A DNA stretch of 52,793 nucleotides. It comes from Streptomyces afghaniensis 772 (GTDB lineage: Bacteria > Actinomycetota > Actinomycetes > Streptomycetales > Streptomycetaceae). A model generated the notes under the pieces. The model was not told the DNA's origin, made no database searches, and saw only the letters and a program-made list of their open reading frames with translations. Below are positions 14,945-32,277 of this stretch, one piece after another; the first letter of the stretch is position 1, and each line of letters begins with the position of its first letter. Made by a program: the position numbers and the translations under genes. The stretch spans positions 1 through 52,793 of the forward strand of contig KE354187.1 in the NCBI GenBank assembly GCA_000415505.1, in the 5' to 3' direction.

Positions 14945-15132
14945 CGGCGCTCGTCCAGCAGGTCGTACGCCTTCTGCGACTCGGTGGCGGGCGTGGAGAG
15001 GTCCTCTTCCTCCCCGGCCCGCGCCATGGCGGCGGCTGCGACGGCCAGCACCAGGGCACCCAGCCACAGGCCGCCCACGAGCCTGCGCCGCCGGAAAGCC
15101 CACTGTCCGATCCGGTCAAGGCAAGTTGCCAT
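14941..15132 (-). pseudogene. N-terminal fragment of an MMPL transporter, fused in operon to the MFS gene
   Basis: Encodes 63 residues: MATCLDRIGQWAFRRRRLVGGLWLGALVLAVAAAA is the first membrane helix of an MMPL protein, and TPATESQKAYDLLDERR is the family sequence that follows. It then stops at a TGA that overlaps the GTG of the MFS gene. It has its own GGAG 8 bp before the ATG. The remaining roughly 650 residues of the transporter are gone. It may still act as a leader whose translation feeds the MFS start. Confidence 0.75.
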
Positions 15133-15454: not shown

Positions 15455-16627
15455 TTACCGATTGGCGGCCAGCACTGCCGCGAGGCCTTCTTGCAGATCT
15501 TTGACGAAATACTCGGGGACCTCCAGCGACGGGAAGTGTCCCCCACTCTCGGGCGTCCTCCATCGGACGATCTGTCGGTACCGCTCCTGTGCCCAGGGGC
15601 GCGGACACTTCTCGACGTCGCGGGGATACATGGTGAGTGCTGACGGGACGTCGACCCGCAGTTCGGGGTCCAGAGAGTTGTGGCTTTCGTAGTAGATGCG
15701 GGCCGCCGAAGCGCCGGTCCGGGTCAGCCAATACAGGGTGACGTCGTCAAGAACCCTGTCTTTGGAAATCGTCTCGAACGGGCTGTCTTCGGTGTCTGAC
15801 CACTCGGCGAACTTGTCGAGGATCCAGGCGAGAAGCCCGACCGGTGAGTCGACGAGCGAGTAGCCGATGGTCTGCGGTCGGGTCGCCTGCTGCTTCGCGT
15901 ACGCCGCGCGGTGGCGCCAGAAGTCGCGGGTTTCCTCGGTCCACTTGCGCTCGACCGACGTCAACCCGTCCGTTGTCAACCCGGGCGGTCCCTCCGCGAA
16001 CGTGGTGTGGATACCGAGAACGTGCGCCGGGAACCTGCCGCCGAGGACCGTGGTGATATTTCCTCCCCAGTCGCCGCCGTGGGCTACGAACGTGCTGTAG
16101 CCGAGCCTTCCCATCAGTTCCACCCATGCGGCCGCGATCCTTTCGGTTCCCCACCCGGTGGTGGCCGGCTTGTCGCTGTAACCAAAGCCTGGTAGCGACG
16201 GGACCACGACGTGGAACGCCGGAGCGTCTGCATCTTTCGGATCTGCCAGCTCGTCCACTACATCGACGAACCGAGCAATGCTGTCTGGCCAGCCGTGCGT
16301 CATGATCAGAGGAGTGGCATCGGCGCGCGCGGATCGGCGGTGCAGGAAGTGGATTCCCAGATCGTCAATGGTCGTGCGGAACTGGCCCATGCGGTTGAGG
16401 CGCTCTTCGAACGACCGCCAGTTGTACTCGGTGCGCCAGTAGTTCACGACATCGACGAGGTCGGCGAGAGGAACGCCCTGTTCCCATCGGCGAGGGCCGG
16501 GCGCGGCGCGACAGACCGTCTCGGCCTCCGGTAGTCGGGCCGCGGCCAGTCGAGCGCGCAGATCGTCGAGGTCAGCGTCAGTTGCATGGGCTTCAAATGC
16601 TTGCACGTCGCTGGTTCGACGGGGCAT
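15455..16627 (-). CDS. Epoxide hydrolase (alpha/beta hydrolase with EHN domain)
   Basis: Opens epoxides to diols in the cytoplasm. The N-terminal EHN lid (about residues 8-110) has DLDDLRARLAAARLPE and DLVDVVNYWRTEYNWRSFEERLNRMGQF. The alpha/beta hydrolase core follows, with oxyanion motif HGWP (111-114), nucleophile Asp186 in HGGDWGG, and catalytic His364 in GGHFPSLEVPE. At 390 residues it is full length. AGGAGG stands 5-6 bp before ATG 16627. It is divergent from a CGNR zinc-finger protein, and two dyad repeats lie between them, so that protein is the likely regulator. Substrate unknown. Confidence 0.93.
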   Translation of the reverse strand: MPRRTSDVQAFEAHATDADLDDLRARLAAARLPEAETVCRAAPGPRRWEQGVPLADLVDVVNYWRTEYNWRSFEERLNRMGQFRTTIDDLGIHFLHRRSARADATPLIMTHGWPDSIARFVDVVDELADPKDADAPAFHVVVPSLPGFGYSDKPATTGWGTERIAAAWVELMGRLGYSTFVAHGGDWGGNITTVLGGRFPAHVLGIHTTFAEGPPGLTTDGLTSVERKWTEETRDFWRHRAAYAKQQATRPQTIGYSLVDSPVGLLAWILDKFAEWSDTEDSPFETISKDRVLDDVTLYWLTRTGASAARIYYESHNSLDPELRVDVPSALTMYPRDVEKCPRPWAQERYRQIVRWRTPESGGHFPSLEVPEYFVKDLQEGLAAVLAANR

Positions 16628-16730: not shown

Positions 16731-17306
16731 ATGCGTTCTGGGTTTCCTGACTTCCGCCTCGGCAGCGTGCTGGCGACCAGCTTCACGGGGACTCTGTCGG
16801 AGCGTCACGGCGACGCCGTGGAGCGCATTCCCGTGCCGCAGCGACTCATCGACTGGCTGGCGGTGAACGGCCTCACCGTGGACTCCTGCACCCCTGCCCA
16901 GCTCGACCTCGCTCGGGAACTGAGGGAGTCGATTCACGCCGCCGCGACAGCGGCCGCGCTCCAGGACGCTCTCCCTGCGTCAGCTGTCCAGGTCATCAAC
17001 GACTGCAGCGCCCAGGGCCGGGCCGCGGCCATCCTGACACCCGAGGGTGAGCGGCGATGGCGGCTCAGCTCGGCTTCCTGCGTGGAAGATGCCCTCGGCG
17101 TGATCGCCGCCGACGCGATCAGCATCATCGCTGGCGATCGAGACGGAAAACTGGCCTTGTGCGCATCGCCGACCTGCCGAGCCGCCTTCTTCGACACCAG
17201 CCAGAGTCGCACGCGCAAGTGGTGTGACATGAACACGTGCGGGAATCGCCAGAAGAAAGCGCGCTTCAACGCCAACCAGCGCAAAACCCCCAGATCAGCG
17301 GATTGA
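16731..17306 (+). CDS. CGNR zinc-finger (ABATE-domain) protein, putative regulator
   Basis: A 191-residue protein of the CGNR family, regarded as stress- or ligand-responsive DNA-binding regulators. The N-terminal ABATE region (about 10-135) shows LAVNGLTVDSCTPAQLDLARELRESIHAA. The C-terminal zinc finger is LCASPTCRAAFFDTSQSRTRKWCDMNTCGNRQKKARF, with C144, C149, C165 and C170 as ligands. ATG 16731 directly abuts a dyad element and lacks a clear ribosome-binding site, so the message may be leaderless and self-repressed. It probably controls the divergent epoxide hydrolase; that is inferred from layout. Confidence 0.87.
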   Translation: MRSGFPDFRLGSVLATSFTGTLSERHGDAVERIPVPQRLIDWLAVNGLTVDSCTPAQLDLARELRESIHAAATAAALQDALPASAVQVINDCSAQGRAAAILTPEGERRWRLSSASCVEDALGVIAADAISIIAGDRDGKLALCASPTCRAAFFDTSQSRTRKWCDMNTCGNRQKKARFNANQRKTPRSAD

Positions 17307-17365
17307 TCGTTGCCGAGCGGCCCGCTTTCGATCTCGATCATTCTGGGTGTCGCCTGCCGATGGGC

Positions 17366-18532
17366 TCAGAAGGCCGGTGCTGCCTGCTCGGCGGCCTGAC
17401 TCTGGCGCCGCGCACCGAGCACGGCTTCCCTCAACCGTTCCTGAGCCATCGTCAGGCACGCGTAGACCGCTCCTTGTGCCGTCGACAGGCCGATCCGATG
17501 CGGACCCGTCCTGATCTCCGGCACCGCCGGAAGGCTCTGGCCGAGCCGCTCACGCACCTGAGGAAGGACGACGTCGACGAGCGGGCGCAGCCGGCCCACG
17601 AAGTAGACCGACTCCGGGTCGAGCGTCACCGCGACGACACTGACAGCGGTCACGATCGCCGTGGTGAACGCCTGCAGCACCTCGGCGTGCGGCGCTTCGG
17701 TGTGCGGTTGCAGCCAGAGATCCTCGACGCGCTCCAGGTCGAGCCCCCGCTTGCGAGCGAACCGGAGCAGACCCCTGGTGCTCAGCAGCTCGTCGAGGTT
17801 CTCGTCGCCGACTCCGGAGGAGAGCACACCGATGTCGCCGAACGCGGGTGTACTTCCCCGGGCGAGCTCGTGATCCGTGCAGCTGGCGAAGTTCAGTATG
17901 GTGCTGACGCTGAAGAGCGCGGCGTTCCTGATGGTCGCGTCGTCGGTGAGGATTCCGAGCAGGGACGCGTTGGCATCGCTGTCGAGGAGCACGGGGGCCT
18001 CGACAAGGTTCTCGACGGCCTGATGGAGGCCTGATCCCGCGAAGATTTTCATCGACTCCGCGGGGCCGAAGATCTCCGTGCCACCCCGGACCCGGCCGGG
18101 CACCGCGGCGACGATCTGACGCAGAGGACCCTGCGCAGACCGGGCGGCCTGCGCGATCAGGTCGACCAGCCATCGCGCGGCCTCCTCGACCTCCTGGTGA
18201 TCGGCGGTGGGCACCGTCACGTGCTGGATCTCACGCCCCCTCAGGTCGGTCACCAGCACACCGGTGGTCTGGGCGCCGAAGCTGACACCGGCGACGTGAC
18301 CGGTCGTGCGGGGCAGGTCCAGATAGGTGGAACGGCGGCCGCGGCCGGTGATCTCGTCGACCCCGCCGTCGACGACGAAGCCGTCGGCACGGAGCTCCTC
18401 CACAGCTCTGGACACGGTGGCCTTGCTCAGGCCCGTCAGCTCGATGAGCTTGTTCCGCGTCAAGGGCGCGTGGGAGAGGAGCACGTCGAGGACTGATGCC
18501 TTGTTGTAGTCGCGTGAGGTCGGGTTGGTCAC
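17366..18532 (-). CDS. ROK-family transcriptional regulator
   Basis: A DNA-binding regulator with a sugar-kinase-like C-terminal domain. From GTG 18532 the 388-residue chain starts VTNPTSRDYNKASVLDVLLSHAPLTRNKLIELTGLSKATVSRAVEELRADGFVV, a winged HTH at about 5-65. The ROK domain follows, with GVSFGAQTTGVLVTDL and an effector region. The longest frame continues 59 residues upstream but that part is disordered and GC-biased, so GTG 18532 is preferred; no ribosome-binding site is visible there. The catalytic DxGxT of true ROK kinases is not apparent and the zinc CGxxGC motif is missing, consistent with a regulator. It is divergent from the FAD oxidoreductase and is the leading candidate to bind the dyads at 18884 and 21005. 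Confidence 0.88.
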   Translation of the reverse strand: MTNPTSRDYNKASVLDVLLSHAPLTRNKLIELTGLSKATVSRAVEELRADGFVVDGGVDEITGRGRRSTYLDLPRTTGHVAGVSFGAQTTGVLVTDLRGREIQHVTVPTADHQEVEEAARWLVDLIAQAARSAQGPLRQIVAAVPGRVRGGTEIFGPAESMKIFAGSGLHQAVENLVEAPVLLDSDANASLLGILTDDATIRNAALFSVSTILNFASCTDHELARGSTPAFGDIGVLSSGVGDENLDELLSTRGLLRFARKRGLDLERVEDLWLQPHTEAPHAEVLQAFTTAIVTAVSVVAVTLDPESVYFVGRLRPLVDVVLPQVRERLGQSLPAVPEIRTGPHRIGLSTAQGAVYACLTMAQERLREAVLGARRQSQAAEQAAPAF

Positions 18533-18883
18533 GTGATGACCATAGCGAGCCCGGTGCGCCGATCGGGCAGGGACCGCTTTGGGCGGTACGCCCAAGGGTT
18601 TCGGCGCGGTGAGAGGTGGCCGTTTCGACGGATCTGTCGTTCCCGCCTGGGCGCGCTCGAAGGGGTCCGTGTCGGCGTCTTCCGCCTCGCCGGACGGTTC
18701 TCGACTCATCTGTCATGCACTCCGCAGGGTTTCCGAAGCACTCCAGGAGCGCAGCACCACGTCGCGGCGAAGCCTGGAAGCCGGGGCCGACGACCAACTG
18801 ACTGCCGGAACGACCTCGACGTCGCCGGGCCGCTGCCCCTCCTTCGGGACGGCTTGACCGCATACCGCGAGCATACCAGTATT

Positions 18884-18920
18884 AGTTTCAGGCTGGAACT
18901 GCAACAAATACTGTTAAGGT
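18884..18920 (+). promoter_or_regulatory. Promoter and dyad operator for the FAD oxidoreductase
   Basis: The dyad AGTTTCAGGCTGGAACT (18884-18900; 14 of 17 bases symmetric) overlaps a -35-like CTGGAA (18893-18898). A 16-bp spacer leads to an extended -10, TG-T-TAAGGT (18912-18920). The same arrangement recurs at 21005-21041. An A/T-rich AACAAATA lies between the boxes. It is about 87 bp upstream of the gene start. Confidence 0.7.
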
Positions 18921-19006
18921 CCCAGCCCAGCAGCGAGCACCTTCCGACGTGCCTGACTCACGTACACCCAGAGCGGCTGACAGCAATGGCAGGAGAGAGC
19001 AGCGAC

Positions 19007-20284
19007 ATGAAGTTCACCCCCTACTGGCTCGACACCGCTCCCCAGGGTCCGGACCGATCCCGGACCGACATCGGTGGACACGTCGACGTGGCGGTCATCG
19101 GGGCCGGCCTGACCGGCCTTTCGGCGGCACTGCACCTGGCGCGGAAGGGCGCGAACGTGCACGTCTTCGAGAAGGACACGGTCGGATTCGGCGCGTCGGG
19201 CCGCAACGGCGGCATGGCCACCACGGGCATGTCGATCGGCTTCCGCTCCGCGGTCTCCCGTTACGGCTTCGATACCGCGAAGGCGTACCTGCTGGCCTAT
19301 CACGACGCGGTCGACACCATCGAAACCCTCGTCAAGGAAGAGAACATCGACTGCGACTTCGCCCGCACGGGCAAGCTGAACCTGGCGTCCAAGCCGGCTC
19401 ACTTCGAGGGTCTGCGCAAGACCCACGAGATCATGTCCGGCCGGCTAGGGCTCGAGACCCACCTGGTACCCAGGAGCGAGCTCCACTCGGAGATCGGTTC
19501 CGACTGCTACCACGGTGCGCTGGTCGAGGCCAGGAGCGCGGGGCTGCACGTCGGTAAGTTCACCAAGGGGCTCGCAGAGGCGGCCGCGCGGATCGGCGTG
19601 ACGATTCACGAGAAGGCTCCGGTCGAGCAGGTCCGGCGGCTGGGCGGCACCAAGCACGAGGTGGTCACGGCGCGCGGTACCGTCCGGGCCGATCAGGCGC
19701 TCGTCGCGACCAGCGGCTACACCGGCCGGCCGTTCCGCTGGCTCCAGGTCAGGATCGCGCCCGTCGGCAGCTTCATCATCGTGACCGAACCGCTGGGCAA
19801 GGACGTCTGCGACCAGATCATGCCGACCCGGCGGATGGCGTCGACGTCCATGAACCTGCTGAACTACTTCCGGATCACCCCGGATCACCGGTTGCTGTTC
19901 GGTGGCCGCGCCCGGTTCGCGATGTCCGGCCCGCAGTCGGACGCGAAGAGCGGCCGCATCCTGCACAAGGCGATGACCGAGGTCTTCCCGCAGCTCACGA
20001 ACGCGCGCGTCGACCACTGCTGGGGCGGCCTGGTCGACATGAGCATGGACCGGATGGTGCACGCCGGCGAGCACGACGGGCTGTTCTACTCGCTCGGCTA
20101 CTCCGGCCACGGCGTCCAGATGGCGACGCACATGGGCAAGCAGATGGCCTCGTACATGAACGGGACTCCGGCTGCCAATCCCTGGAGCGACCTGCCCTTG
20201 AAGCGGATTCCGGGCCACTTCGGCCCGCCGTGGTTCCTGCCCTTCGCAGGCGCCTTCTACAAGTTCCTGGACATCATCAAGTAG
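19007..20284 (+). CDS. FAD-dependent oxidoreductase (DadA/PuuB-type amine oxidase)
   Basis: Oxidises a C-N bond of an amine or amino acid with FAD. The Rossmann motif is at about residues 24-55 (VDVAVIGAGLTGLSAALHLARKGANVHVFEK), then GFGASGRNGGM, the typical DAO-family FAD contact. The C-terminal FAD motif is GLFYSLGYSGHGVQMATHMGKQMA. The chain is 425 residues. The closest recognisable type is gamma-glutamylputrescine oxidase. ATG 19007 (start MKFTPYWLDTAPQ) has AGGAG at 18991-18995; ATG 18986 is an alternative adding 7 residues. It shares its promoter/operator sequence with the aminotransferase-like operon 2 kb downstream, so the two are probably one regulon. Expected products would be an aldehyde and ammonia or a smaller amine. 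Confidence 0.9.
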   Translation: MKFTPYWLDTAPQGPDRSRTDIGGHVDVAVIGAGLTGLSAALHLARKGANVHVFEKDTVGFGASGRNGGMATTGMSIGFRSAVSRYGFDTAKAYLLAYHDAVDTIETLVKEENIDCDFARTGKLNLASKPAHFEGLRKTHEIMSGRLGLETHLVPRSELHSEIGSDCYHGALVEARSAGLHVGKFTKGLAEAAARIGVTIHEKAPVEQVRRLGGTKHEVVTARGTVRADQALVATSGYTGRPFRWLQVRIAPVGSFIIVTEPLGKDVCDQIMPTRRMASTSMNLLNYFRITPDHRLLFGGRARFAMSGPQSDAKSGRILHKAMTEVFPQLTNARVDHCWGGLVDMSMDRMVHAGEHDGLFYSLGYSGHGVQMATHMGKQMASYMNGTPAANPWSDLPLKRIPGHFGPPWFLPFAGAFYKFLDIIK

Positions 20285-20673
20285 GCATGGGGTGGAGACG
20301 CTGAGCACCCGCGGGGACCACTGTGGAGCTCCCCCGTGCTGGTCTCATCGGGGGCCCGGTCGGCAACCGCCTCCGGGCCCTGGCGCAGCCGCACGCCTCC
20401 TGCTTCGATGCTTTCCGCCGGCTTCCTGGTGCGGACGCCAGTGATGCCCTCGCGTTCCTTGGACGCATCACATGATGCGGGCGGTGGGCGAAGCCGCCCG
20501 GATCGACCACCTCCCCCGTGACCGAAGCATCCGCGCCCGCCCAGCACCTCACGGAACCCCTCGCCCCGCCGCCGATCAACCAGGACACACCCGGGCCAGC
20601 CGGTCGGGGTGAAGGCTGGCGCGTCCTGGAGGCCGTGGCCGAGTACCAGCTGGTCACCGTCCTGGAGACGCCA

Positions 20674-20840
20674 ACGATCTTCGGTACCTTCAACGACGAG
20701 GACAAGGTCCTGCGCCACGCCAGCGACACGCCCTTGGGTCTCATCAGTTACGTGCGTCTTCGCCCTGGGGCTGGACTGCGGCCTGCGCGTCAGCGAGCAT
20801 CTGCAGACAGCCTGAACACCGGCCTCGCTCCAGCCCCTCA
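20674..20840 (+). pseudogene. Aldehyde dehydrogenase remnant 1 (internal C-terminal segment)
   Basis: Short pieces of an aldehyde dehydrogenase: TIFGTFNDEDKVLRHASDTPLGLISYV at about 20674-20754, then in another frame FALGLDCGLRVSEHLQTA to 20812, then LNTGLA in a third. These match the family stretch around the EIFGP motif through ASDTPYGL to GLNTG. At least two frameshifts; both ends missing. The rest of 20285-21004 shows no gene. Confidence 0.65.
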
Positions 20841-21004
20841 GCCCCGCTCGGCGGGTCAAGCAGTTCGGGCCGGCCCCACTCCCCTCCCCCTCGCGTCCCC
20901 TCTCGCGCATGGATGGACCCGCCCCAGACACCCAGGCACCCGTGCCCTCCCGCGCACGCGGAGCGGCCCGCAGGTGCCCCCGCAAGCCCCTCAGAAAAGT
21001 TTCT

Positions 21005-21041
21005 AGTTTCAGGTTGGAACTGGAATAAATGATGGTATGGT
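21005..21041 (+). promoter_or_regulatory. Promoter and dyad operator for the phospho-lyase/kinase/HAD operon
   Basis: AGTTTCAGGTTGGAACT (21005-21021) differs from the dyad at 18884 by one base. It overlaps a -35-like TTGGAA (21014-21019); after a 16-bp spacer an extended -10, TG-G-TATGGT, lies at 21033-21041. Spacing and order are identical to the first copy, which argues for one shared regulator. Confidence 0.72.
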
Positions 21042-21091
21042 TTCGGCCAACACAGCGAGCAACCCGGAACAGACTGAAGGTGTGCCTGCCG

Positions 21092-22441
21092 ATGACTTCG
21101 ACGCTGAGTCGGGCAATCGCCCACTACCCCAACCGGTTCGACCCCGGGGTACTGAGCGAGCTCCCCGAACACCTCCGAGAGACCATCCAGCGCCGGAACG
21201 AGGTGCTGGGCCCTGGCTACACACTGATCTACAGGGAGCCGGTCGAGTTCGTCTCCGGTCACGGCGCCCACCTGATCGACCGTGACGGCAACGACTACCT
21301 CGACGCCTACAACAACGTCCCCTGCGTCGGTCACGCCCACCCCCACGTGGCCGAGGCCGTCGCCCGCCAGATGGCGGCGGTCAACACCAACACGCGCTAC
21401 GTCCAGGAAGCACTCGTCGACTACGCGGAGCGGCTTCTCTCGACGTTCCCCGAGGAGCTGTCCAGGCTGAGCATCGCGTGCAGTGGCTCCGAGGCGAACG
21501 ACCTGGCCGTGCGGGTGGCGCGGTTCCACACCGGCGGCGAGGGCATCATCGTCACCCGCTGGGCCTACCACGGCGTCACCCGGGAGGTGGCGAGCTTCTC
21601 ACCGACCCTCGGCGCGGGATCACCACTGGGCCCGAATGTCCGGCTCATCGATCCGCCGGACCCGCGCCTTGCCGCGCCCGGTTCCACGCTCGACGAGCAC
21701 ATGCGGCAGCAGGTGCGCGGCGCGATCGACGACCTCGAGCGCCACGGCTACCGCCTGGCGGCGCTGATCACCGACTGCGCCTACAGCAGCGACGGCATCT
21801 TCACCGACCCGCCCGGCTACATGCAGGCCGTGGTGGAGGAGGTGCACGCGGCCGGCGGTGTCTACATCGCGGACGAGGTCCAGTCCGGATTCGCCCGGCT
21901 CGGGGACTCGATGTGGGGCTTCAGCCGCCACGGCGTGCTGCCGGACATCGTCACCATGGGCAAGCCGATGGGCAACGGCCTGCCGATCTCGGGTGTGGTC
22001 TTCCGCCCCGAGGTCTGCGAGGAGTTCGGACGCAACGTCCGCTACTTCAACACCTTCGGCGGCAGCTCCATCCCCGTGGCCGCCGGCGCCGCGGTGCTGG
22101 ACGTCTTCGAGAAGGAGAACGTGCAGCAACGCGTCCTGGAGAACGGCAACGCTCTGCGCGCGGGACTGCGGGAGATCACCAAGGACTCCCCCTACGTCGC
22201 CGAAGTCCGCGGCGCCGGTCTCTTCGTCGGCGTGGAGATCGTCAAGGACCGGGAGACCCTCGAACCCGACCGCGCACTTGCCGAAGACGTCATCAACGAC
22301 ATGCGCGATCGCCGCATCCTGATCAGCGGCACGGGCACGTCGGCGAACACGCTGAAGATCCGCCCTCCGCTGGCCTTCGACTCCGCCGATGTGACCCGAT
22401 TCCTGGAGACCTTCGCCGAGGTCGCGAAAAACCGTCTGTGA
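21092..22441 (+). CDS. Class III PLP enzyme, AGXT2L/PHYKPL-type phospho-lyase
   Basis: A PLP enzyme of aminotransferase fold type I, 449 residues. K291 in VTMGKPMGNGLPI should bind PLP, with DEVQSGFAR upstream. Several landmarks match the human phosphohydroxylysine and phosphoethanolamine phospho-lyases better than ordinary class III aminotransferases: NVPCVGHAHPHV, NTNTRYVQEALVDYAERL, SGSEANDLAVRVAR, and VRYFNTFGGSSIPVAAGAAVLDVFEKENVQ followed by RGAGLFVGVEIVKD. Such enzymes eliminate phosphate and ammonia from O-phosphorylated amino alcohols to give an aldehyde. The kinase that could make such a substrate is the next gene, which strengthens the assignment. GAAGG lies about 11 bp before ATG 21092. 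An aminotransferase role remains possible. Confidence 0.85.
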   Translation: MTSTLSRAIAHYPNRFDPGVLSELPEHLRETIQRRNEVLGPGYTLIYREPVEFVSGHGAHLIDRDGNDYLDAYNNVPCVGHAHPHVAEAVARQMAAVNTNTRYVQEALVDYAERLLSTFPEELSRLSIACSGSEANDLAVRVARFHTGGEGIIVTRWAYHGVTREVASFSPTLGAGSPLGPNVRLIDPPDPRLAAPGSTLDEHMRQQVRGAIDDLERHGYRLAALITDCAYSSDGIFTDPPGYMQAVVEEVHAAGGVYIADEVQSGFARLGDSMWGFSRHGVLPDIVTMGKPMGNGLPISGVVFRPEVCEEFGRNVRYFNTFGGSSIPVAAGAAVLDVFEKENVQQRVLENGNALRAGLREITKDSPYVAEVRGAGLFVGVEIVKDRETLEPDRALAEDVINDMRDRRILISGTGTSANTLKIRPPLAFDSADVTRFLETFAEVAKNRL

Positions 22442-22464
22442 CAGGCCGGCCGAAGGGACTGACC

Positions 22465-23547
22465 GTGACCACCTCACCAGCTGCGAACCATGCTCAGCGG
22501 CTCCTCGAGGAGAGCGGCCTGACGTCGTCCCACGAGCCCATCGACGTGATGCTGGTGAGCTTCTTCCTTGAGGAGCACTACCGCCTCACCGGGCGCTTGG
22601 GGCGACTGGCGACCGAGAAGGACGACACGTTCCGACTCGGCACCGACTCGAGCACCTACCTCGTGAAGGTCTCACCACCTGACGAGACGGAGGCCGTTGT
22701 CGCCCTCCAGACCGCCGCGATGCGCTACCTCGAAACCACCGCTTCGCACCTGCCCGTCCAGCGGGTGAAGCTGACCGCCGGCGGAGACGACCATGTCACG
22801 ATCAGGCTGAACGACGGCAGGACCCGTGTCCTGCGGGTGTTCGACTTCGTCGAAGGCCAGGTCCTGGCAGATGCGAACCCGGACGCGGAGCGGCTCGCCA
22901 AGGCGGGCGAGATGCTGGGGCTGATCGACGTGGCGCTCAGACCGTTCACGCACCCGGCGGACCGACGAGGTCTGGCATGGGACATCCGGCATTTCCACCA
23001 GATGACCGAACTGGTCGACCACACGCCGAACCCCGAGCACCGCCAGTTGGCCCAGTCGGTCTTCCGGCTCTTCGGCGAAAACATCGTCCCGAGGCTGGGC
23101 GATCTCGAAACGCAAGTGATCCACGGAGACTTCAGCCCCTACAACATCGTGGTGGACCCAGAGAAGAGCGATCACTTCGTCACCGGTGTCATCGACTTCG
23201 GCGACACCGTACGCAGCGCGGTGATCTTCGACCCCGCCGTCCCCATGGCGAACCTGCTCGGCAGGACACCAGATCATCCCTGGCGGGACGCCTGCGCCTT
23301 CGCTGCCGGCTACCAACGAAAGCGGCCGATCCAGGCCTCGGAACTTCCGCTGCTCCCGGTTGCCGCGTTGGCACGGCTCACACTGCGTGCGCTGATCACG
23401 AACTGGCGCGCGGAGCGCGCACCCGAACGGCGCGAGTACCTCCTCGGCCACGCCAAGGACGACTGGATCAATATTGAGCGTTCCTTGACCGTGAGCCTGG
23501 ACGACGTCGTCGCGCACCTCAGGGAAGCCCGTCACGGGCATTCCTGA
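22465..23547 (+). CDS. APH-fold phosphotransferase, hydroxylysine-kinase-like
   Basis: Small-molecule kinase with the aminoglycoside phosphotransferase fold, 360 residues. The catalytic loop is VIHGDFSPYNIVVD with Asp222. The metal-binding motif is GVIDFGDTVRSAVIFDPAV with Asp244; this DFGD and following segment resemble human hydroxylysine kinase (HYKK). GTG 22465 has AAGGGA 6 bp upstream; a GTG at 22438 overlapping the previous stop is an alternative. Together with the preceding phospho-lyase it reproduces the two-step hydroxylysine/ethanolamine route: phosphorylate the hydroxyl, then eliminate phosphate and ammonia. The actual substrate is unknown. A resistance kinase is less likely in this context. 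Confidence 0.83.
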   Translation: MTTSPAANHAQRLLEESGLTSSHEPIDVMLVSFFLEEHYRLTGRLGRLATEKDDTFRLGTDSSTYLVKVSPPDETEAVVALQTAAMRYLETTASHLPVQRVKLTAGGDDHVTIRLNDGRTRVLRVFDFVEGQVLADANPDAERLAKAGEMLGLIDVALRPFTHPADRRGLAWDIRHFHQMTELVDHTPNPEHRQLAQSVFRLFGENIVPRLGDLETQVIHGDFSPYNIVVDPEKSDHFVTGVIDFGDTVRSAVIFDPAVPMANLLGRTPDHPWRDACAFAAGYQRKRPIQASELPLLPVAALARLTLRALITNWRAERAPERREYLLGHAKDDWINIERSLTVSLDDVVAHLREARHGHS

Positions 23548-23598
23548 AAGCCAGTCCCGAACATGTGCAGTTTCCCATGACATGACAGGAACATCCTC

Positions 23599-24279
23599 AT
23601 GCCCATTCCCTCGCTCCAGTTCCGCCCGAAGTACGTCTCGTTCGACTGCTACGGCACGTTGATCGAGTACCCGATCACGCCCATCACGCATGAACTCGTC
23701 GGCGACCAGATCCCCGCCGAGCACTGGGACCAGTTCGTCCGGGAGTTCCGCGGCTACCGCTACGACCAGGTCCGCGGCAAGTACTACCCCTACGAGCAGG
23801 TGCTGCAGGACTCCTTCGAGCGGGTCTGCCGCAAGTGGGGTGTGAAGGCGGCACCGGACGCGGGCAAGCGGTTCGCCGACGGCGTCCGCAGCTGGGGCCC
23901 CCACCCGGACGTCGTGGAGCCGCTGAAGAAGATGGGCGAGCACTACAAGCTGGTGATCCTGTCCAACGCCGACGACTCCTTCCTCGCGGAGAGCGTGCCC
24001 CGCCTGGGGGCGGACTTCCACGCGGTCTTCACCGCGGAGCAGGCCGGCTACTACAAGCCCCGCTACGCCGCGTTCGAGTACATGCTCGACCAGCTCGACG
24101 CCTCCCCCGAGGACTTCGTGCACGTCGCCTCGCACACCCGCTACGACCACATGTCGATGCACGACATGGGCTTCCGCAACCTCATCCTGCTGGACCGCGG
24201 CTACGACCCCGTGACCCACGGCTACGACTACGTGACGGTGAAGTCCCTGGACGAGCTCAACACCATGCTCGGCATCTGA
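23599..24279 (+). CDS. HAD-superfamily hydrolase (haloacid dehalogenase type II-like)
   Basis: A 226-residue HAD enzyme. Nucleophile Asp16 sits in VSFDCYGTLIEY. Motif II is VILSNADDSF, motif III Lys is in AGYYKPRYAAFEYML, and motif IV acidic residues lie in FVHVASHTRYDHMSMHDMG. The sequence type (SFDCYGTLI, YKPRYAAFE) is that of L-2-haloacid dehalogenase relatives, many of which are actually phosphatases. It follows the kinase by 51 bp in the same direction and is probably the last gene of the operon, being followed by a strong hairpin. A housekeeping phosphatase role on a phosphorylated intermediate is plausible; dehalogenation is not supported by anything else here. Confidence 0.88.
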   Translation: MPIPSLQFRPKYVSFDCYGTLIEYPITPITHELVGDQIPAEHWDQFVREFRGYRYDQVRGKYYPYEQVLQDSFERVCRKWGVKAAPDAGKRFADGVRSWGPHPDVVEPLKKMGEHYKLVILSNADDSFLAESVPRLGADFHAVFTAEQAGYYKPRYAAFEYMLDQLDASPEDFVHVASHTRYDHMSMHDMGFRNLILLDRGYDPVTHGYDYVTVKSLDELNTMLGI

Positions 24280-24294
24280 CCCGAGGCAACACCC

Positions 24295-24350
24295 GTCCCG
24301 CACGGCACACACCCCGGTTTCTCCCGCGGTTTGTGTTTGCCGTGCGGGAC
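24295..24350 (+). terminator. Stem-loop terminator after the HAD gene
   Basis: A perfect 13-bp stem (GTCCCGCACGGCA at 24295-24307 and its complement at 24338-24350), partly extended inward by CACACC/GGTTTGTG. It lies 16 bp after the HAD stop. No T-run follows, as is usual for Streptomyces intrinsic-type terminators. Confidence 0.7.
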
Positions 24351-24588
24351 AAGAATCCGGTGCCTTCCGCACCTGTGTGACAGAGTCACCGCGGGCTCCG
24401 GCGGCAAGCAAAGCGACAGGAAATACGCTGTCGCGTCATAGCCGCTGTTTGATAGCGCGCGAACACCGCTGCACATGGCAGCGTTCTCTCCTCTCTCCCC
24501 GGTCTCGCGCGGCACCTCATCAGCCCCGAGCTGTCCTGGCCACGCTGCCGACCTCGCCCCAGAACCTCAAGAACTGCCCGAAGGCCCC

Positions 24589-24765
24589 GGCTGCTTCTAC
24601 CCGCCCACCGTCCTCACCGGCATCACCCCCGACGCCGCCATCAACGACACCGAGGTCTTCGGCCCCGTCGCCCCCTTCGGCGGCGTCAAGCAGTCCGGCC
24701 TCGGCCGCGAAGGCGGACGCGTCGGCATCAACGAGTTCCTCGAGTACAAGTACATAGCCGTCCCC
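24589..24765 (+). pseudogene. Aldehyde dehydrogenase remnant 2 (C-terminal, internally deleted)
   Basis: Encodes [43 protein letters not shown], then [13 protein letters not shown]. This is the C-terminus of a succinate-semialdehyde-type aldehyde dehydrogenase, but the roughly 55 residues that normally separate EVFGPVAP from PFGGVKQSG are cleanly missing. The N-terminal half with the catalytic Cys is absent. The missing stretch is the part preserved in remnant 1 at 20674-20840. Its normal job would be to oxidise the aldehyde made by this cluster. Confidence 0.75.
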
Positions 24766-24796
24766 GTGGCAGACGGCAATCGGCCGGTGGGGGACG

Positions 24797-26146
24797 TCAG
24801 GCCGGGCGGACCGCGCCCTTGATCGCCGACTGGCCGGCGAAGAACACCGACTCCTCACGGATGAGCGCTCCGGGGCCCGGGGCATGAATCATCATGCCGT
24901 CGCCGCTCCAGATGCCGACGTGGCCGAGGTCGTCGTGGAAGAAGACCAGGTCTCCGACCTGGACGTCAGCGAGCGAGACCTGCACCCCCGCTCCCCACTG
25001 GTCCTGGATGGTCCGGGGAAGCGTGACGCCGACAGCCTTCCACGCGGCCTGGGACAGACCGGGGGCGTCGTACGATCCCGGCCCGACCGCGCCCCATACG
25101 CAGGGCCGACCGATCTGCGCTCGGGCGAAGGCGACCACTCGCTCGGCCTGGGTGCTGTGGCCGGCGTCCTGCGGCAGCCATGATCCACCGTAGACACCGG
25201 GTGAGAAGGCGGTGGAGGGAGTTTCGCGTGCCGTGAAGGTAACCAGTTCCGCCGGGGCGGCAGCCGCGGTCGGCGCAGCGGGGGCGGGTGCGGTGGCCGG
25301 CTCGGCGGGCACCGCCGGACGAGGGGCCGCCAGGGCAGGAGCAGAGATGCTCGGCAGACCAGCACCATAGGTCGCGGTGGTGCCGTCGGCCGGTGGGCCG
25401 GAGGTGGAGTGAGCGGTGAGATCGGCTGAGAAAGCCGTGGCGTACGGTGCGGTCGCGCCGCTCGCCGGATCGGCACCGTACGTCTCCATCCCGCCTGTTG
25501 GAGGATCCGCATGGTGAGTACCCACGCTGGGGTGCGGGACGGTGGGCAGCGCCGCGGCGGACTGCGGGCCGGGCAGTGGGCCGGACTCCGGGGCGGGCGC
25601 TGGTGCGGGCTCGTACAGCGGCCGCGCCGGCTGGTCGCCGAGGGCCGGCTGCGCGTCGGCCTGCCAGGCGCTCTCGTCCCGACGGGACTCGCCTGCCGCA
25701 GCCGGTGCGACACGCTGGTCGGGGAGCTCCGGGAGAAGTCCAGTGGCCGGGGCCTGAGCTGATCCGCCGGTCAGCCCCCACGCAACACCGGTGGGCGCCG
25801 GGGGCGCTTCGAGAGCGCGGGGTTCCGCGGGACGTTCCGCCGGGCGCATGGGTCGTACCGCCTGGGGCGCGCGGTCGGGACGGGCCGGCAACCTCCTGTC
25901 CGGCTGCGACGCCGGCACGGTCGGGCCCAGTTTGGCACGGGCAGCCTCGAACCACTGTCGGGCAAAGGTTCCGACCGCGGGCTCCCTGTCCCCCTGGGAC
26001 CGGCTGCGGGCGGCCGCGCCCCGCTGGCGCGGGATCGCAGCGGCGCGGGTCGCGTTGAAGGTACCCGTGTCGCTCTCTGCCCGGTCGTAGAGGCTGTCGA
26101 TCAACCGCCGAACCTCGTCAGGGCTCGGCTCCTCGCTCTCACTCAC
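24797..26146 (-). CDS. NlpC/P60-like protein with a degenerate active site
   Basis: About 449 residues. Positions 1-60 are helical ([24 protein letters not shown]). Positions 60-325 are a low-complexity Pro/Ala-rich region with repeated [17 protein letters not shown]-like units. The last 120 residues form an NlpC/P60 fold: [33 protein letters not shown], then [32 protein letters not shown]. In active peptidoglycan endopeptidases the motif is D-C-S-G-L; here Ala361 replaces the Cys. The His is kept, and a Cys occurs seven residues before the motif's Tyr (RPCVWG). No signal peptide is obvious. It is either a binding pseudoenzyme or uses a relocated Cys. The start is uncertain: GTG 26146 is preferred over TTG 26206. 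Confidence 0.8.
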
Positions 26147-26546
26147 CAACGCGGGATCCAGCAGTCTGCGAGAGCCGGGCCTGGACGGTGAAAGCCGCCG
26201 GGGCAAGGGAGTTGGTCCTGTCCGCGAAGTCGGTCGCTTCGGGGCGCGAGGTTCGTTCCGACGCCATGGATAAGGGCGCTCCTTCCGTCCGAGTGCACGA
26301 AACCACCTGCCTGTCGGAAGAAGTCGTGCACGCAGTGGTCAACTTAGCCAACTTGTGAGCCTTCCGTGAAGATCGAAGACCGAAACGTCCGATATGCTTC
26401 TGTGATCTTCACCTCGCATTCGCACCCCGCAGACAATCCACCTCACAGGTGCAGAACTTGGACCGCATTGGGACATCGCGGGTGACTGAGTGAGCGTCAA
26501 GAAAGGTGGTGGCCGCGGCGGGCGGAACGAGGCGTGGTCTGAGCGG
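26147..26546. other. Intergenic region between NlpC-like and methyltransferase genes
   Basis: No gene supported. An inverted repeat GTGAAGATC (26366-26374) / GATCTTCAC (26404-26412) with a 29-base loop stands about 220 bp upstream of the leftward NlpC-like gene. The region around 26330-26460 is more A/T-rich than its surroundings and probably holds that gene's promoter. Confidence 0.45.
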
Positions 26547-27916: not shown

Positions 27917-27976
27917 CGGCAGGAGGCACAAGGTATTGCCCTTCCCGACCCGCCGTGCTTAAGGTCACCCCGTTTG

Positions 27977-28006
27977 TCGAATCGATTCGATTGGTTCGAC
28001 CGAACC
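27977..28006. promoter_or_regulatory. Tandem LacI-type operators upstream of the sugar operon regulator
   Basis: A perfect 14-bp palindrome TCGAATCGATTCGA (27977-27990) followed after 2 bp by GGTTCG-AC-CGAACC (27993-28006). Both contain the TTCG/CGAA half-site and central CG step usual for LacI-family operators. They lie 37-66 bp upstream of the regulator ATG, so autorepression is likely. Confidence 0.7.
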
Positions 28007-28042
28007 CAACGGGGCCCAAGACGGGCCCGGGTGGAGGTGGGG

Positions 28043-29105
28043 ATGACCACGATCAAGGACGTCGCCGAGCGCGCAGGCGTCGCGCCGAGCACCGTGTCGT
28101 ACGTTCTGAGCGGGTCGCGCAAGATCTCCGAGGACACCCGGCGCGCGGTGCAGGCCGCGATCGACGAGCTCGGATACCACCCGCGCGCGAGTGCCCGTAC
28201 GCTGCGCAGCGCGCGGACCCGGGTGCTCGCGCTGGCCGCGCCGCGCGTGCCCGGGGCGTACCGGGCGATCGACGGGCGATTCGCGATCGACGTCACCGAC
28301 GCCGCCCGTGTGCACGGGTACGACGTGCTGCTGATGACGGACGGCGACGGCGTCGGTGGGCTGCGCCGGGTGGCCCGCAGCAGGCTCGCGGACGCCGCGG
28401 TGCTGATGGCGGTCGAGGACCGCGACCCCCGTGTCGAGGTCCTGCGCGAACTGGGCTTCCCCGGGGCGCTGCTCGGTCATGACGATCACGCGGCGCTGCC
28501 CTGGACCGACCTCGACTGGGAGGCCGCCGTCGCCCTCGCCGTGCGCGAGACCGCCGCGGCCGGCCACCGGCGGATCCTCTTCCTCTCGTCGGCCGAGCAC
28601 GAGGTCGCCGCACGCCGCGGCTATGCCCTGCACGGCCTCGACGGCGCCCGGCGAGCGACCGTCGAGACCGGGGCCGACGTCCGCGTGACTCCCCTCCCAC
28701 CGCGACCCGGACGTCCTCACAGGGCGGCTGAGTGAGGCGCTGACCGCGCGGCCCGTCCCGACCGCGCTGGTCGTCCAGCACCTGATTCTCCTCCCCCGCC
28801 TGCTGGATGCGGTGGCGGCGGCCGGGTTGCGGGTCCCCCACGATCTGACCGTCGTGCTCGTCGGCAGCCTCCCGGACGAGATGGGCATCCGGCATCTGCC
28901 GCGGATCGATCTGCCCGTCGCGGAGATGTCCACGGCCGTGGCCCGGCTCGCCATCGACGCGATCGGCTCCGGCCGCGACGACCGGTCATCGACTTCGCGG
29001 GAGCCCTTCGCGGCACCTGCCTCGAGCATGCCCTCCGGCGCTCCGCACCACCTGATCCAGCCGCGGATGGCCGGGCCCGTCATCGCCCCGCCGTCGCCCG
29101 GCTGA
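28043..29105 (+). pseudogene. LacI-family regulator with an internal frameshift
   Basis: The N-terminus from ATG 28043 is a normal LacI HTH (MTTIKDVAERAGVAPSTVSYVLSGSRKISEDTRRAVQAAIDELGYHP), followed by the first half of the ligand-binding domain. The frame ends at 28735. A different frame carries the expected continuation from about 28692 (HRDPDVLTGRLSEAL, then RVPHDLTVVLVGSLPDEMGIRHLPRIDLPVAEMSTAVARLAIDAI) to a stop at 29105. The break lies in a C-rich run at 28691-28700, so either a real indel or a sequencing error. As written, a 231-residue truncated product retaining DNA binding would result. It probably controlled the downstream transporter and glycosidases. Confidence 0.8.
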
Positions 29106-29194
29106 GCACTCGGACCGCCCGTACGGCACGGCCGGCGACGCCCCATCGCCGGACACCGCATGTCCAGAGCCGCACATGTTACGGAGGACCAGCC

Positions 29195-30448
29195 TTGCCG
29201 TTCTCAGCAGGACGCATCGGAACAAGACGCGGACGCGTTCCCGCGCTGGCCGTCACCCTTGCCTGTGTCATCGTCGCGCCGGGGCTGACCGGCTGTGCTG
29301 CGCAGCCCGACCCCGGCACCGTCACCGTGCTCAACTCGGCGACCGACACCGCCGAACACACCGCCAACCAGCGGTTCTTCGACCGCTGCGGCAAGCCGCT
29401 CGGCCTGAAGGTCGAGCAGGTCAGTGTGCCCGCCGACCAGATCGCCTCCAAGGCGCTGCGGATGGCGTCGTCCGACTCGCTCACCGACATCCTGGAGCTC
29501 GACGGCTCGGAGCTGCCCCAGTTCGCGCAGACCGAGGGCCTGCGGCCGCTCGACGAGGTCGGGGTCGACACCTCCGGCCTCTCCGCGAGCGCGAAGTCCC
29601 TGGGCTCATACGACGGCACTCAGTACGGCATCGCCCGTTCCGTCAACTCCCTCGCGCTGATCTACAACACCAAGCTCCTCGAGGACGCGGGTATCGCCGT
29701 GCCCACCACCTGGAAGGAGCTGCGGGCCGCCGCGAAGAAGCTGACCGCGGGCGACACGTACGGCATGGCCTTCAGCGCGAGCCCGAACGCGGACGGCGTC
29801 TACCAGTTCCTTCCCTTCTTCTGGTCCGCGGGCGGTGACGAGGCCGAGATCGACAACGGCAAGGGCGAGGCCGCCCTCCAGCTCTGGAAGGACCTGGTCG
29901 CGGACGGCTCCGCCTCCAGGTCCGTCGTCAACTGGAACCAGCAGGACGTCAACGACCAGTTCGTCGCCGGCCGCGCCGCCATGATGATCAACGGGCCGTG
30001 GCAGGTGCCGGTCCTCAGTGCCCAGAAGAAGGTGGACTGGGCGGTCGCGAGCATTCCGGTGCCCGAGGCGGGCAAGCCGGCGGTGCCGCCCATCGGCGGC
30101 ACCGTCATGGCCGTACCGAAGAACGACGAGGACCCGGCCCGCGAGAACAACGCCGGCAAGGTCCTGAACTGCCTCAACTCCGAGAAGAACCAGCTGCAAT
30201 GGGGCGTGTCGGTCAACAACGTGCCCACCCGCGCCACGGCCGCGCAGGCGTACGCGAAGCAGAACCCGAAGCTCGCCGCCTTCGCCGAGCTCGTCACCAC
30301 CGCCCGCTCCCGTACGGCGAAGGTCGGCACCGGCTGGCCGGTCGTCGGCGACGCGCTCGCGGGCGCCTTCCAGTCCGTGCTGACGGGCCGGACCAGTCCG
30401 GAACAGGCCCTGCGCCGGGCCCAGCAGCAGGCTTCGGCGGGGAAGTGA
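29195..30448 (+). CDS. Sugar ABC transporter substrate-binding lipoprotein
   Basis: Extracytoplasmic solute-binding protein family 1, 417 residues, tethered by lipid. It begins at TTG 29195 with GGAGG at 29183-29187. The signal peptide has twin arginines and a lipobox ending at Cys34 (GLTGC). The mature protein shows the family pattern (TVLNSATDTAEHTANQRFFDRC, NSLALIYNTKLLEDAGI, FVAGRAAMMINGPWQV). It precedes two permeases in one operon with two glycoside hydrolases. From those enzymes the ligand is likely an oligosaccharide carrying alpha-xylosyl and beta-glucosyl units; this is inference. Confidence 0.9.
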   Translation: MPFSAGRIGTRRGRVPALAVTLACVIVAPGLTGCAAQPDPGTVTVLNSATDTAEHTANQRFFDRCGKPLGLKVEQVSVPADQIASKALRMASSDSLTDILELDGSELPQFAQTEGLRPLDEVGVDTSGLSASAKSLGSYDGTQYGIARSVNSLALIYNTKLLEDAGIAVPTTWKELRAAAKKLTAGDTYGMAFSASPNADGVYQFLPFFWSAGGDEAEIDNGKGEAALQLWKDLVADGSASRSVVNWNQQDVNDQFVAGRAAMMINGPWQVPVLSAQKKVDWAVASIPVPEAGKPAVPPIGGTVMAVPKNDEDPARENNAGKVLNCLNSEKNQLQWGVSVNNVPTRATAAQAYAKQNPKLAAFAELVTTARSRTAKVGTGWPVVGDALAGAFQSVLTGRTSPEQALRRAQQQASAGK

Positions 30449-30458
30449 GGAACCGGCC

Positions 30459-31418: not shown

Positions 31419-31424
31419 CCGGTG

Positions 31425-32264
31425 ATGAACCGACCGATGAAACGACCTGCGAGCCTGCTGCGCGTTCGTTCGGTGTGGAACACCGCCGCCGCGCTGCTGA
31501 TCCTCGCCGTGCTGCTCTTCCCCGTGTACTGGATGCTCAACACCGCCCTCCAGCCCGAGTCGAGCATCGCCGCCACCGAGTGGTTCCCCGTATCACCGTC
31601 CCTCAAGAACTTCGACACGGCGATCAGCACCCAGGGCGGCTCGCTGCTCACCAGCTTCGTCGTCGCGCTCGGCGCCGTCGTCGTCTGTCTCGCGCTCGCC
31701 GCGCCCGCCGCGTACGGTCTCGCCCAGTTCGGACTCCGCGGCGGGCAGGGCATCGTCTTCGCGACGCTCATCACGCAGATGGTTCCGGGCATCGTCATCG
31801 CCAACGCCCTCTACAGCGCCTACGCCCAGCTCGACCTCGTCAACTCCTACCTGGGGCTGATCCTGGCGGACGCCTCGCTCGGTCTGCCGTTCGCGGTCGT
31901 GCTGCTGCGGGCGTTCATGGTGTCGATTCCCAGCGAGGTCGTCGAGGCCGCGATGGTGGACGGTGCGAACCGCTTCACCGCGTTCGTGCGGATCGTGCTG
32001 CCCATGAGCCGCAACGCCCTGATCACGGCGGGACTCTTCACCTTCCTCTTCGCCTGGTCCGACTTCATGTTCGCGCTCACCCTCAACACCACGGACGACG
32101 TCAAGCCCATCACGCTCGGCATCTACCAGTTCGTCGGCGCACATGTCAGCGACTGGGGCGCGGTCATGGCGACCGCGGTGCTCTCCGCCGTACCGGCCGC
32201 GATCCTGCTCGTCGTCGCCCAGAAGTACATCGCTGCCGGGATCACCGGTGGGTCGGTCAAGTAG
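31425..32264 (+). CDS. Sugar ABC transporter permease (MalG type)
   Basis: Second permease of the heterodimer, 279 residues, six predicted helices. The EAA loop is EVVEAAMVDGANRFTAFVRIVLPM. ATG 31425 (GTG 31422 is also possible) has GGGGAA about 10 bp upstream. It is tightly packed in the operon, with the GH1 gene starting 13 bp later. Confidence 0.92.
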   Translation: MNRPMKRPASLLRVRSVWNTAAALLILAVLLFPVYWMLNTALQPESSIAATEWFPVSPSLKNFDTAISTQGGSLLTSFVVALGAVVVCLALAAPAAYGLAQFGLRGGQGIVFATLITQMVPGIVIANALYSAYAQLDLVNSYLGLILADASLGLPFAVVLLRAFMVSIPSEVVEAAMVDGANRFTAFVRIVLPMSRNALITAGLFTFLFAWSDFMFALTLNTTDDVKPITLGIYQFVGAHVSDWGAVMATAVLSAVPAAILLVVAQKYIAAGITGGSVK

Positions 32265-32277
32265 GCAGGTGCCTTCA

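What the first reader, a model, noticed from the sequence alone, without database searches (positions are those of the whole stretch)
21092..24279. Hydroxylysine-kinase-like and phospho-lyase-like genes side by side: a possible amino-alcohol degradation pathway
The class III PLP enzyme carries landmarks of the AGXT2L/PHYKPL phospho-lyases (VGHAHPHV, NTNTRYVQEALVDYA, FNTFGGSS), and the next gene is an APH-fold kinase with the HYKK-like DFGD segment. In animals this pair degrades 5-hydroxylysine. Here it is joined to a HAD enzyme and co-regulated with a FAD amine oxidase. The combination suggests a bacterial route for a hydroxylated amine or diamine via O-phosphorylation and elimination of phosphate and ammonia.
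Basis: partly seen in the sequence, partly recalled or inferred. Interest (0 to 1): 0.82.

Follow-up and report, generated by a model that had tools for sequence, protein, structure and literature searches.

The report
Amino-alcohol kinase and phospho-lyase operon
A soil Streptomyces carries a small set of genes, switched together, that very probably breaks down an amino alcohol by attaching phosphate and then expelling phosphate and ammonia; the chemistry is known from animals and a few bacteria, but which compound is eaten here is not known.

Summary
Window 21092-22441 encodes a class III PLP enzyme, 22465-23547 an APH-fold kinase, 23599-24279 a HAD hydrolase, all on the + strand. The PLP enzyme belongs with the phospho-lyases: its best solved relatives by sequence and fold are A1RDF1 (5g4i) and human ETNPPL (6tor), and a tree separates it from five class III paralogues of the genome. 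The kinase's best profile hit among solved proteins is the aminopropanol kinase 6ef6. Kinase and lyase are neighbours in 68 of 75 relatives and fused in two. A 17-base operator lies upstream of the lyase in 42 of 49 close relatives, and before the FAD oxidase in the window and five relatives. The chemistry (amino alcohol to phosphate ester to aldehyde + Pi + NH3) has precedents in animals and a bacterial microcompartment: a new variant, not a new kind. The substrate is unknown; my low-confidence guess is a C4 amino acid such as 3-hydroxy-2,4-diaminobutyrate giving aspartate semialdehyde, and the boldest source is mugineic-acid phytosiderophores. Two aldehyde-dehydrogenase fragments flank the operon here.

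The parts
17366..18709 (-). ROK-family repressor gene, divergent from the FAD gene; probable regulator of the unit
   Evidence: PF00480 3.5e-9 and winged-helix hits; a ROK homologue (>= 60% identical) in 47 of 49 loci with PLP >= 80% identical
18885..18901 (+). Operator copy 1 (GTTTCAGGCTGGAACTG) between ROK and FAD genes
19007..20284 (+). FAD amine/amino-acid oxidase, DAO family (relative of L-pipecolate oxidase AmaA and Phn_aa_oxid, far below their cut-offs)
   Evidence: PF01266 9.4e-69; NF050086 186 of 600 bits
20686..20876 (+). Fragment of an aldehyde dehydrogenase of the kind found beside the kinase in some relatives
   Evidence: 70-75% DNA identity to ALDH genes of L011, L017, L020, L021, L024, L025, L042
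21006..21022 (+). Operator copy 2 (GTTTCAGGTTGGAACTG), 69 bases before the PLP gene
21092..22441 (+). Class III PLP enzyme, phospho-lyase type
22465..23547 (+). APH-fold small-molecule kinase (amino-alcohol kinase type)
23599..24279 (+). HAD type II hydrolase; best solved match 3smv, whose entries are named (S)-2-haloacid dehalogenase and L-azetidine-2-carboxylate hydrolase
   Evidence: TIGR01428 over cut-off
24571..24774 (+). Second aldehyde-dehydrogenase fragment, with an internal deletion
   Evidence: tblastn and blastn against ALDH of relatives

Best explanation
A ROK-controlled catabolic unit. The kinase (22465-23547) phosphorylates the hydroxyl of an amino alcohol of the type H2N-CH2-CH(OH)-R; the PLP enzyme (21092-22441) eliminates phosphate, and the enamine/imine left behind releases ammonia and gives the aldehyde OHC-CH2-R; a succinate-semialdehyde-type aldehyde dehydrogenase oxidises it (only fragments remain beside the operon here, but a full-length homologue lies elsewhere in the genome). 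The co-regulated FAD oxidase and the HAD hydrolase most likely act earlier, freeing the amino alcohol from a larger secondary-amine or ring compound. Shown: gene content, family membership, pairing, shared operator. Inferred: the reactions, their order, the ROK protein as binder of the operator, and the substrate. Substrate guess (about 0.25 on its own): a C4 amino acid with 4-amino and 3-hydroxy groups, such as 3-hydroxy-2,4-diaminobutyrate, giving aspartate semialdehyde.
For: PLP enzyme nearest to solved phospho-lyases: 356 and 304 bits, next hit 159; fold search ranks 5g4i and 6tor first; the tree separates the phospho-lyase side (50 of 55 rows) from five class III paralogues of the genome, 100/99; lyase motifs NNV, GKPM, YFNT and K-x-RPP are shared with the solved lyases (K-x-KPP in ETNPPL, FFNT in A1RDF1) and absent from those paralogues. 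Kinase: best profile hit 6ef6, 1.2e-9, titled aminopropanol kinase, with the highest query-normalised TM-score listed, 0.71. Pairing: kinase on the same strand within 3.5 kb in 68 of 75 loci and found in 34 of 37 loci of the P. poae genus, all 34 on the same strand; single open frame of both in L055 and L061, the two checked; both window proteins match opposite ends of one fused NCBIfam model, below its cut-off. Regulon: operator in 42 of 49, also before FAD in the window, L004, L065, L024, L025, L042, and between a HAD homologue (42-43% identical) and a transporter gene in L024, L025, L042; 55 hits in 924 kb of those loci, 0 in 523 kb of the 26 others. C4 hints: SSADH-like ALDH, aspartase, homoserine dehydrogenase, DoeB-like deacylase, amino-acid and polyamine type ABC transporters in some relatives.
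Against: No activity is shown. HAD (>= 80%) and FAD (>= 75%) lie within the fetched flanks of only 10 of 49 close loci each (13 of the 49 are shorter than 18 kb), and in none of the 7 loci with PLP 60-80% identical, so they are not obligatory partners; the HAD homologue under its own operator in Lentzea is only 42-43% identical. The C4 genes are each in a minority (aspartase 8, DoeB-like 4, homoserine dehydrogenase 3 of 49). The window's own ALDH is reduced to fragments. The kinase's identity to solved enzymes is low (12-21%). The transaminase glutamate position is not decisive: only one of the five paralogues has it.
Confidence: 0.75

Rival explanations
1. The pair degrades 5-hydroxylysine as in animals: 5-phosphohydroxylysine to 2-aminoadipate semialdehyde; the FAD enzyme could feed the same semialdehyde from (hydroxy)pipecolate.
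Against: The associated ALDH is of the succinate-semialdehyde type (569 of 646 bits); no neighbour that I named by profile passes the cut-off of a lysine-degradation model; the HAD enzyme has no role. HYKK and PHYKPL sequences were not at hand for a direct test.
Confidence: 0.17
2. Substrate is ethanolamine or 1-amino-2-propanol (giving acetaldehyde or propionaldehyde), as for ETNPPL and the Aut/Aaum microcompartment.
For: 6tor is titled O-phosphoethanolamine phospho-lyase and the kinase's best profile hit is an aminopropanol kinase; the genome has no ethanolamine ammonia-lyase match.
Against: No microcompartment shell gene match in the genome; in Lentzea the transporter beside the same operator is of the amino-acid family-3 type; SSADH-like ALDH; FAD and HAD enzymes are unexplained.
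Confidence: 0.13
3. The amino alcohol comes from 5-hydroxyectoine: ring opening and deacetylation give 3-hydroxy-2,4-diaminobutyrate, which the pair converts to aspartate semialdehyde without the proposed EutABC conversion to ectoine.
For: Pair beside eutBC-doeAB in Chelatococcus; a DoeB homologue (62% over 329 residues) after the kinase in Microvirga L064 and DoeA-like stretches (35-44%) in L043 and L044; the EutABC route had not been biochemically evaluated according to PMC5924519 (passages).
Against: This genome has no ectoine hydrolase above the cut-off; EutB and EutC matched only 1 of the 85 loci then held; FAD and HAD enzymes are not needed.
Confidence: 0.1
4. Ordinary case: a transaminase next to an unrelated antibiotic-resistance-like kinase.
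For: The kinase's fold search also lists amicoumacin and aminoglycoside kinases.
Against: Tree, motif and fold evidence for phospho-lyase; pairing and fusion across phyla.
Confidence: 0.05

Closest known systems
Animal hydroxylysine kinase (HYKK) + ammoniophospho-lyases PHYKPL/ETNPPL
   Same: APH-type kinase and class III PLP phospho-lyase; lyase 304 bits to ETNPPL
   Different: Bacterial operon with ROK repressor, FAD oxidase and HAD hydrolase; substrate unproven. The animal pathway is recalled; its paper PMC3293546 was not held, its title was seen in a reference list
Aut/Aaum/RMM microcompartment (aminopropanol kinase 6ef6 + class III enzyme)
   Same: Kinase plus class III PLP enzyme; 6ef6 is the best profile hit of the kinase. 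Mycolicibacterium locus L067, which I take for this system from recall, lies in the same tree
   Different: No shell gene match in this genome; different regulator and partners. PMC6620236 (passages) predicts a transaminase and a late role for the phosphotransferase, not kinase then lyase
A1RDF1 phospholyase of Arthrobacter aurescens TC1 (5g4i)
   Same: Closest solved relative by sequence and fold (43% in the structural alignment)
   Different: On a long branch of its own; NTFGGSS here, NTFAGNP there
Herbaspirillum rubrisubalbicans operon Hrubri_0242-0245
   Same: Genes annotated 4-aminobutyrate aminotransferase, hydroxylysine kinase and 2-haloacid dehalogenase in one operon (PMC13275390, passages)
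   Different: Lrp/AsnC instead of ROK; the operon's substrate is not given in the passages seen; sequences not compared

Membership tests
Class III PLP phospho-lyases | Class III aminotransferase fold with PLP lysine | tested here: met
   PF00202 1.1e-62; MGKPMGNG with K291 invariant in 19 aligned rows; that this is the PLP lysine is recalled
Class III PLP phospho-lyases | Groups with proven phospho-lyases rather than transaminases | tested here: met
   the tree used 55 rows and 5 of the genome's 15 other class III matches; A1RDF1, ETNPPL and the paralogues are long branches, and the program warns of false joins
Class III PLP phospho-lyases | Shared lyase motifs (NNV, GKPM, FNT, K-x-R/K-PP) | tested here: met
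   present here and in both solved lyases, absent from the five paralogues
Class III PLP phospho-lyases | Loss of the GabT-type glutamate (its role is recalled) | tested here: inconclusive
   SSDG here, STEG and SCGG in the solved lyases; but of five paralogues only L078 has the glutamate
Class III PLP phospho-lyases | Release of phosphate and ammonia, no transamination | not testable with these tools
   needs enzyme assay
Amino-alcohol / hydroxylysine kinases | APH fold with HGDxxxxN and DFGD motifs | tested here: met
   H220, D222, N227, D244-D247 invariant in 13 of 13 rows, with H-x-D rather than HGD in one; model pLDDT 91
Amino-alcohol / hydroxylysine kinases | Nearest characterised relative is an amino-alcohol kinase, not an antibiotic kinase | tested here: inconclusive
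   6ef6 aminopropanol kinase 1.2e-9, homoserine kinase 4.7e-8, amicoumacin kinase 2.9e-5; by Foldseek E-value homoserine kinase is first and amicoumacin kinase precedes 6ef6
Hydroxylysine kinase sensu stricto | Activity on 5-hydroxylysine | not testable with these tools
   no HYKK sequence or assay at hand
Aut/Aaum/RMM microcompartment | BMC shell proteins | tested here: not met
   PF00936: 0 matches in the genome; control rings in 2 of 14, E. coli and Synechococcus
Haloacid dehalogenase / azetidine-2-carboxylate hydrolase | HAD type II with catalytic Asp (FDxYGTL) and SN, K motifs | tested here: met
   TIGR01428 over cut-off; alignment with 3smv; activity not tested
5-hydroxyectoine catabolism | Ectoine hydrolase DoeA/EutD in the genome | tested here: not met
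   TIGR02993: best 78.6 of 613 bits; the family rings below cut-off in all 14 controls

The most novel reading that the evidence does not exclude
The unit is part of a bacterial pathway that consumes mugineic-acid-type phytosiderophores (or nicotianamine relatives): the FAD oxidase cleaves secondary amines, the HAD enzyme opens the azetidine-2-carboxylate ring, the remaining 3-hydroxy-2,4-diaminobutyrate is phosphorylated and split by the kinase and lyase to aspartate semialdehyde, and ALDH and aspartase lead it to the citric acid cycle. A paralogous module in the same islands of some relatives (FAD, HAD, ALDH, class III aminotransferase, aspartase) would handle the unhydroxylated compounds.
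Probability: 0.08. Interest if true: 0.85.

Novelty: new variant of a known kind. Interest (0 to 1): 0.52.

Why it matters
Kinase plus phospho-lyase looks like a widespread bacterial module: matches to the lyase (E <= 1e-60) sit on 384 of 72,556 plasmid records and to the kinase (E <= 1e-25) on 201, yet NCBIfam calls the fused form a hypothetical protein and several records call the lyase an aspartate aminotransferase family protein. The conserved operator gives a direct way to find the inducer and so the substrate. If the bold reading is right, it would name enzymes for phytosiderophore breakdown, which PMC7786132 infers for P. fluorescens SBW25 without naming enzymes in the passages seen.

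Tried and rejected
Ordinary transaminase: rejected. Antibiotic kinase: made unlikely by pairing and fusion, not excluded by fold alone. Microcompartment: rejected for this genome. Ectoine cluster: followed after Chelatococcus, but EutB/EutC matched only 1 of 85 loci and no DoeA passes the cut-off here; the EutB/EutC-like hits in four Pseudomonas loci, profiled in L183, score far below the EutB/EutC cut-offs and somewhat better to alanine dehydrogenase/cyclodeaminase and threonine or hydroxyaspartate dehydratase models. The glutamate test of the PLP enzyme turned out not to discriminate. Tandem repeats at 17000-26500: none. The PLP model (pLDDT 83) was used for a fold search only, not for pocket analysis. 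Literature: nine answered searches listed no paper whose title or abstract start describes this FAD-HAD-kinase-lyase unit; only CC0/CC BY/CC BY-SA papers are searched, so this is weak. Papers seen only as passages: PMC6620236, PMC8154272, PMC12138971 (one reference-list passage), PMC13275390, PMC7786132, PMC8016842, PMC5924519, PMC8007038, PMC10710832; all others as search listings. Mallette and Kimber 2018 (PMC6314145) and Veiga-da-Cunha 2012 (PMC3293546) were not held: titles only, content recalled.
Full report
Observation. The three genes lie as described: PLP enzyme 21092-22441, kinase 22465-23547, HAD hydrolase 23599-24279, all on the + strand. Upstream are a ROK repressor (17366-18709, -) and a DAO-family FAD oxidase (19007-20284, +). 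The window is one contig (C482) of a 9.85 Mb genome in 1,724 contigs; that it is a Streptomyces is inferred from the nearest named relatives, whose PLP enzymes are up to 96% identical.

PLP enzyme. The two best solved relatives are the phospholyase A1RDF1 and human ethanolamine-phosphate phospho-lyase, 356 and 304 bits; the next is 159. A predicted model (mean pLDDT 83) matches 5g4i and 6tor first. In a tree of 55 rows (of 97 collected) 50 rows, namely the window, 47 relatives and both solved lyases, are separated from five class III paralogues of this genome with support 100/99. Those five are the ones with fetched loci among 15 other class III matches in the genome. The program warns that the solved enzymes and the paralogues are long branches and that such joins may be false. 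Motifs agree: NNV, GKPM, FNT and K-x-R/K-PP are shared with both solved lyases and absent from the five paralogues. The position of the GabT glutamate does not decide: it is SSDG here, STEG in A1RDF1, SCGG in ETNPPL, but only one of the five paralogues (L078) has the glutamate.

Kinase. APH family, motif residues invariant in 13 of 13 aligned rows, model pLDDT 91. A profile of the family finds 6ef6 first (1.2e-9), then homoserine kinase 2ppq; Foldseek names 6ef6 a microcompartment-associated aminopropanol kinase and gives it the highest query-normalised TM-score of its listing (0.71), while by E-value homoserine kinase, N-acetylhexosamine kinase and amicoumacin kinase come earlier. A single-sequence search found nothing at 0.001.

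Pairing. Of 75 named loci fetched with the PLP protein 68 have a kinase of this family on the same strand within 3.5 kb; of the other seven, five have one elsewhere in the locus on the other strand, in L058 and L066 directly beside the PLP gene, and in two (L054, and L075 with a partial match) none was found. In L055 and L061, the two I checked, both lie in one open frame of 867 codons, and both window proteins match opposite ends of NF004799, a 1,015-position fused model, below its cut-off as halves must. In the genus of P. poae 35 of 249 genomes have the lyase at 1e-120; of 37 loci examined (36 fetched, plus L052) 34 have the kinase, all 34 on the same strand. In the class as a whole 3 of 229 genomes match at 1e-110. 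Of ten plasmid loci opened from the kinase search, nine have a gene annotated as class III or aspartate-aminotransferase family next to it and one (Thioclava) does not.

Regulon. A 17-base site, GTTTCAGNYTGGAACTG with at most one mismatch, lies within 150 bases upstream of the PLP gene in 42 of 49 loci whose PLP is at least 80% identical; the misses are L009, L011, L014, L018, L022, L071, L074. The same site precedes FAD genes in the window, L004, L065, L024, L025 and L042, and lies between a HAD homologue (42-43% identical to the window's) and a family-3 amino-acid binding protein in L024, L025, L042. There are 55 hits in 924 kb of these loci and none in 523 kb of the 26 others. In 23 genomes searched whole with one mismatch allowed, 21 have one to six sites; the reversed control gave one site in each of two genomes. 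In the window's genome only two exact sites exist. This ties the FAD gene, and the HAD gene as the operon's last member here, to kinase and lyase. The ROK protein as the binder is inferred from its presence in 47 of 49 of those loci.

Partners. Among the 49 close loci: ROK 47, any HAD 30, HAD >= 80% 10, FAD >= 75% 10, any FAD of this kind 17, ALDH >= 60% 9, SDR5 15, 3-hydroxyaspartate-aldolase-like DTA9 12, aspartase 8, DoeB-like 4, class III aminotransferase 3, homoserine dehydrogenase 3 (13 loci are shorter than 18 kb). The 7 loci with PLP 60-80% have neither HAD nor FAD; of 19 below 60%, 6 have HAD and 1 a FAD of this kind. In the Pseudomonas set 11 of 37 loci have HAD and 13 a DAO enzyme. 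The ALDH is closest to succinate-semialdehyde dehydrogenase but below its cut-off (569 of 646 bits). The window carries two fragments of this ALDH; a full-length homologue, 82% identical to that of L020, lies on contig C321 with a second FAD gene and a broken HAD copy, and contig C459 carries SDR5, DTA9, GntR7 and RidA-like homologues.

Mechanism and substrate. From established chemistry of these families (recalled), the pair turns H2N-CH2-CH(OH)-R into OHC-CH2-R. Because the ALDH is of the C4 semialdehyde type and nearby transporters are of amino-acid or polyamine type in some relatives, I favour R = CH(X)COOH; with X = NH2 the product is aspartate semialdehyde, which aspartase and homoserine dehydrogenase in some relatives would suit. 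This is inference. The HAD enzyme's best solved match is named (S)-2-haloacid dehalogenase and L-azetidine-2-carboxylate hydrolase; PMC8016842 (passages) reports such a hydrolase and an acetyltransferase in azetidine-2-carboxylate use in Aspergillus, and a GNAT gene sits in the P. poae unit (2 of 37 loci). PMC7786132 (passages) reports lower mugineic and deoxymugineic acid levels with P. fluorescens SBW25 and infers that the strain has the enzymes, while noting that P. [quoted passage not shown] A Pseudomonas binding protein beside the unit is NikA-like, with a weaker hit to a staphylopine-binding family, both far below cut-off. The structure of mugineic acid and the scheme drawn from it are recalled. 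Together these make a phytosiderophore source possible, not likely.

Known or new. The kinase-lyase chemistry is known from animals (recalled) and, for the kinase, from the aminoacetone microcompartment (title; citation in PMC8007038). The ROK-controlled FAD-HAD-kinase-lyase unit was not found among the listings of nine paper searches; an operon with lyase-like, kinase and HAD genes is mentioned in Herbaspirillum, where its last gene is reported as upregulated with sorghum. Hence: new variant of a known kind. It is accessory: 16 of 295 genomes of the genus have the lyase at 1e-120, the window's own included, and one of the 16 copies carries an internal stop.

Noticed in passing
L157 (own genome C321:5001-25000) and L158 (C459:9001-29000): Two satellite islands with paralogous FAD, HAD, ALDH, polyamine-type ABC, SDR, BhcC-like aldolase and RidA-like genes; the C321 HAD copy (93% identical) is broken in frame.
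   Followed up: partly
L043, L047, L064 (tree) and L084: Lyase-kinase pairs of Mesorhizobium and Microvirga nest inside an otherwise actinobacterial fork, and L084 is annotated with transposases nearby: probable horizontal transfer.
   Followed up: partly
L099 and other Klebsiella plasmid records (39 in all): A related kinase recurs on Klebsiella plasmids; in the one opened it stands with a lyase-like gene, a lysine/arginine/ornithine-type transporter and a GntR regulator.
   Followed up: no
L183, L192, L195, L201 (Pseudomonas): The pair stands with two or more HAD genes, DAO-type FAD enzymes, a dehydratase-like gene and, in some, an ALDH and a cyclodeaminase-like gene.
   Followed up: partly
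window 15455-16627 -: Epoxide-hydrolase-type alpha/beta hydrolase next to an MFS transporter (13532-15103 -), near the ROK gene; neither matched the loci then held.
   Followed up: no
window 27974-32281: LacI-type regulator followed by what look like genes of a carbohydrate ABC transporter (by eye); probably unrelated to the finding.
   Followed up: no
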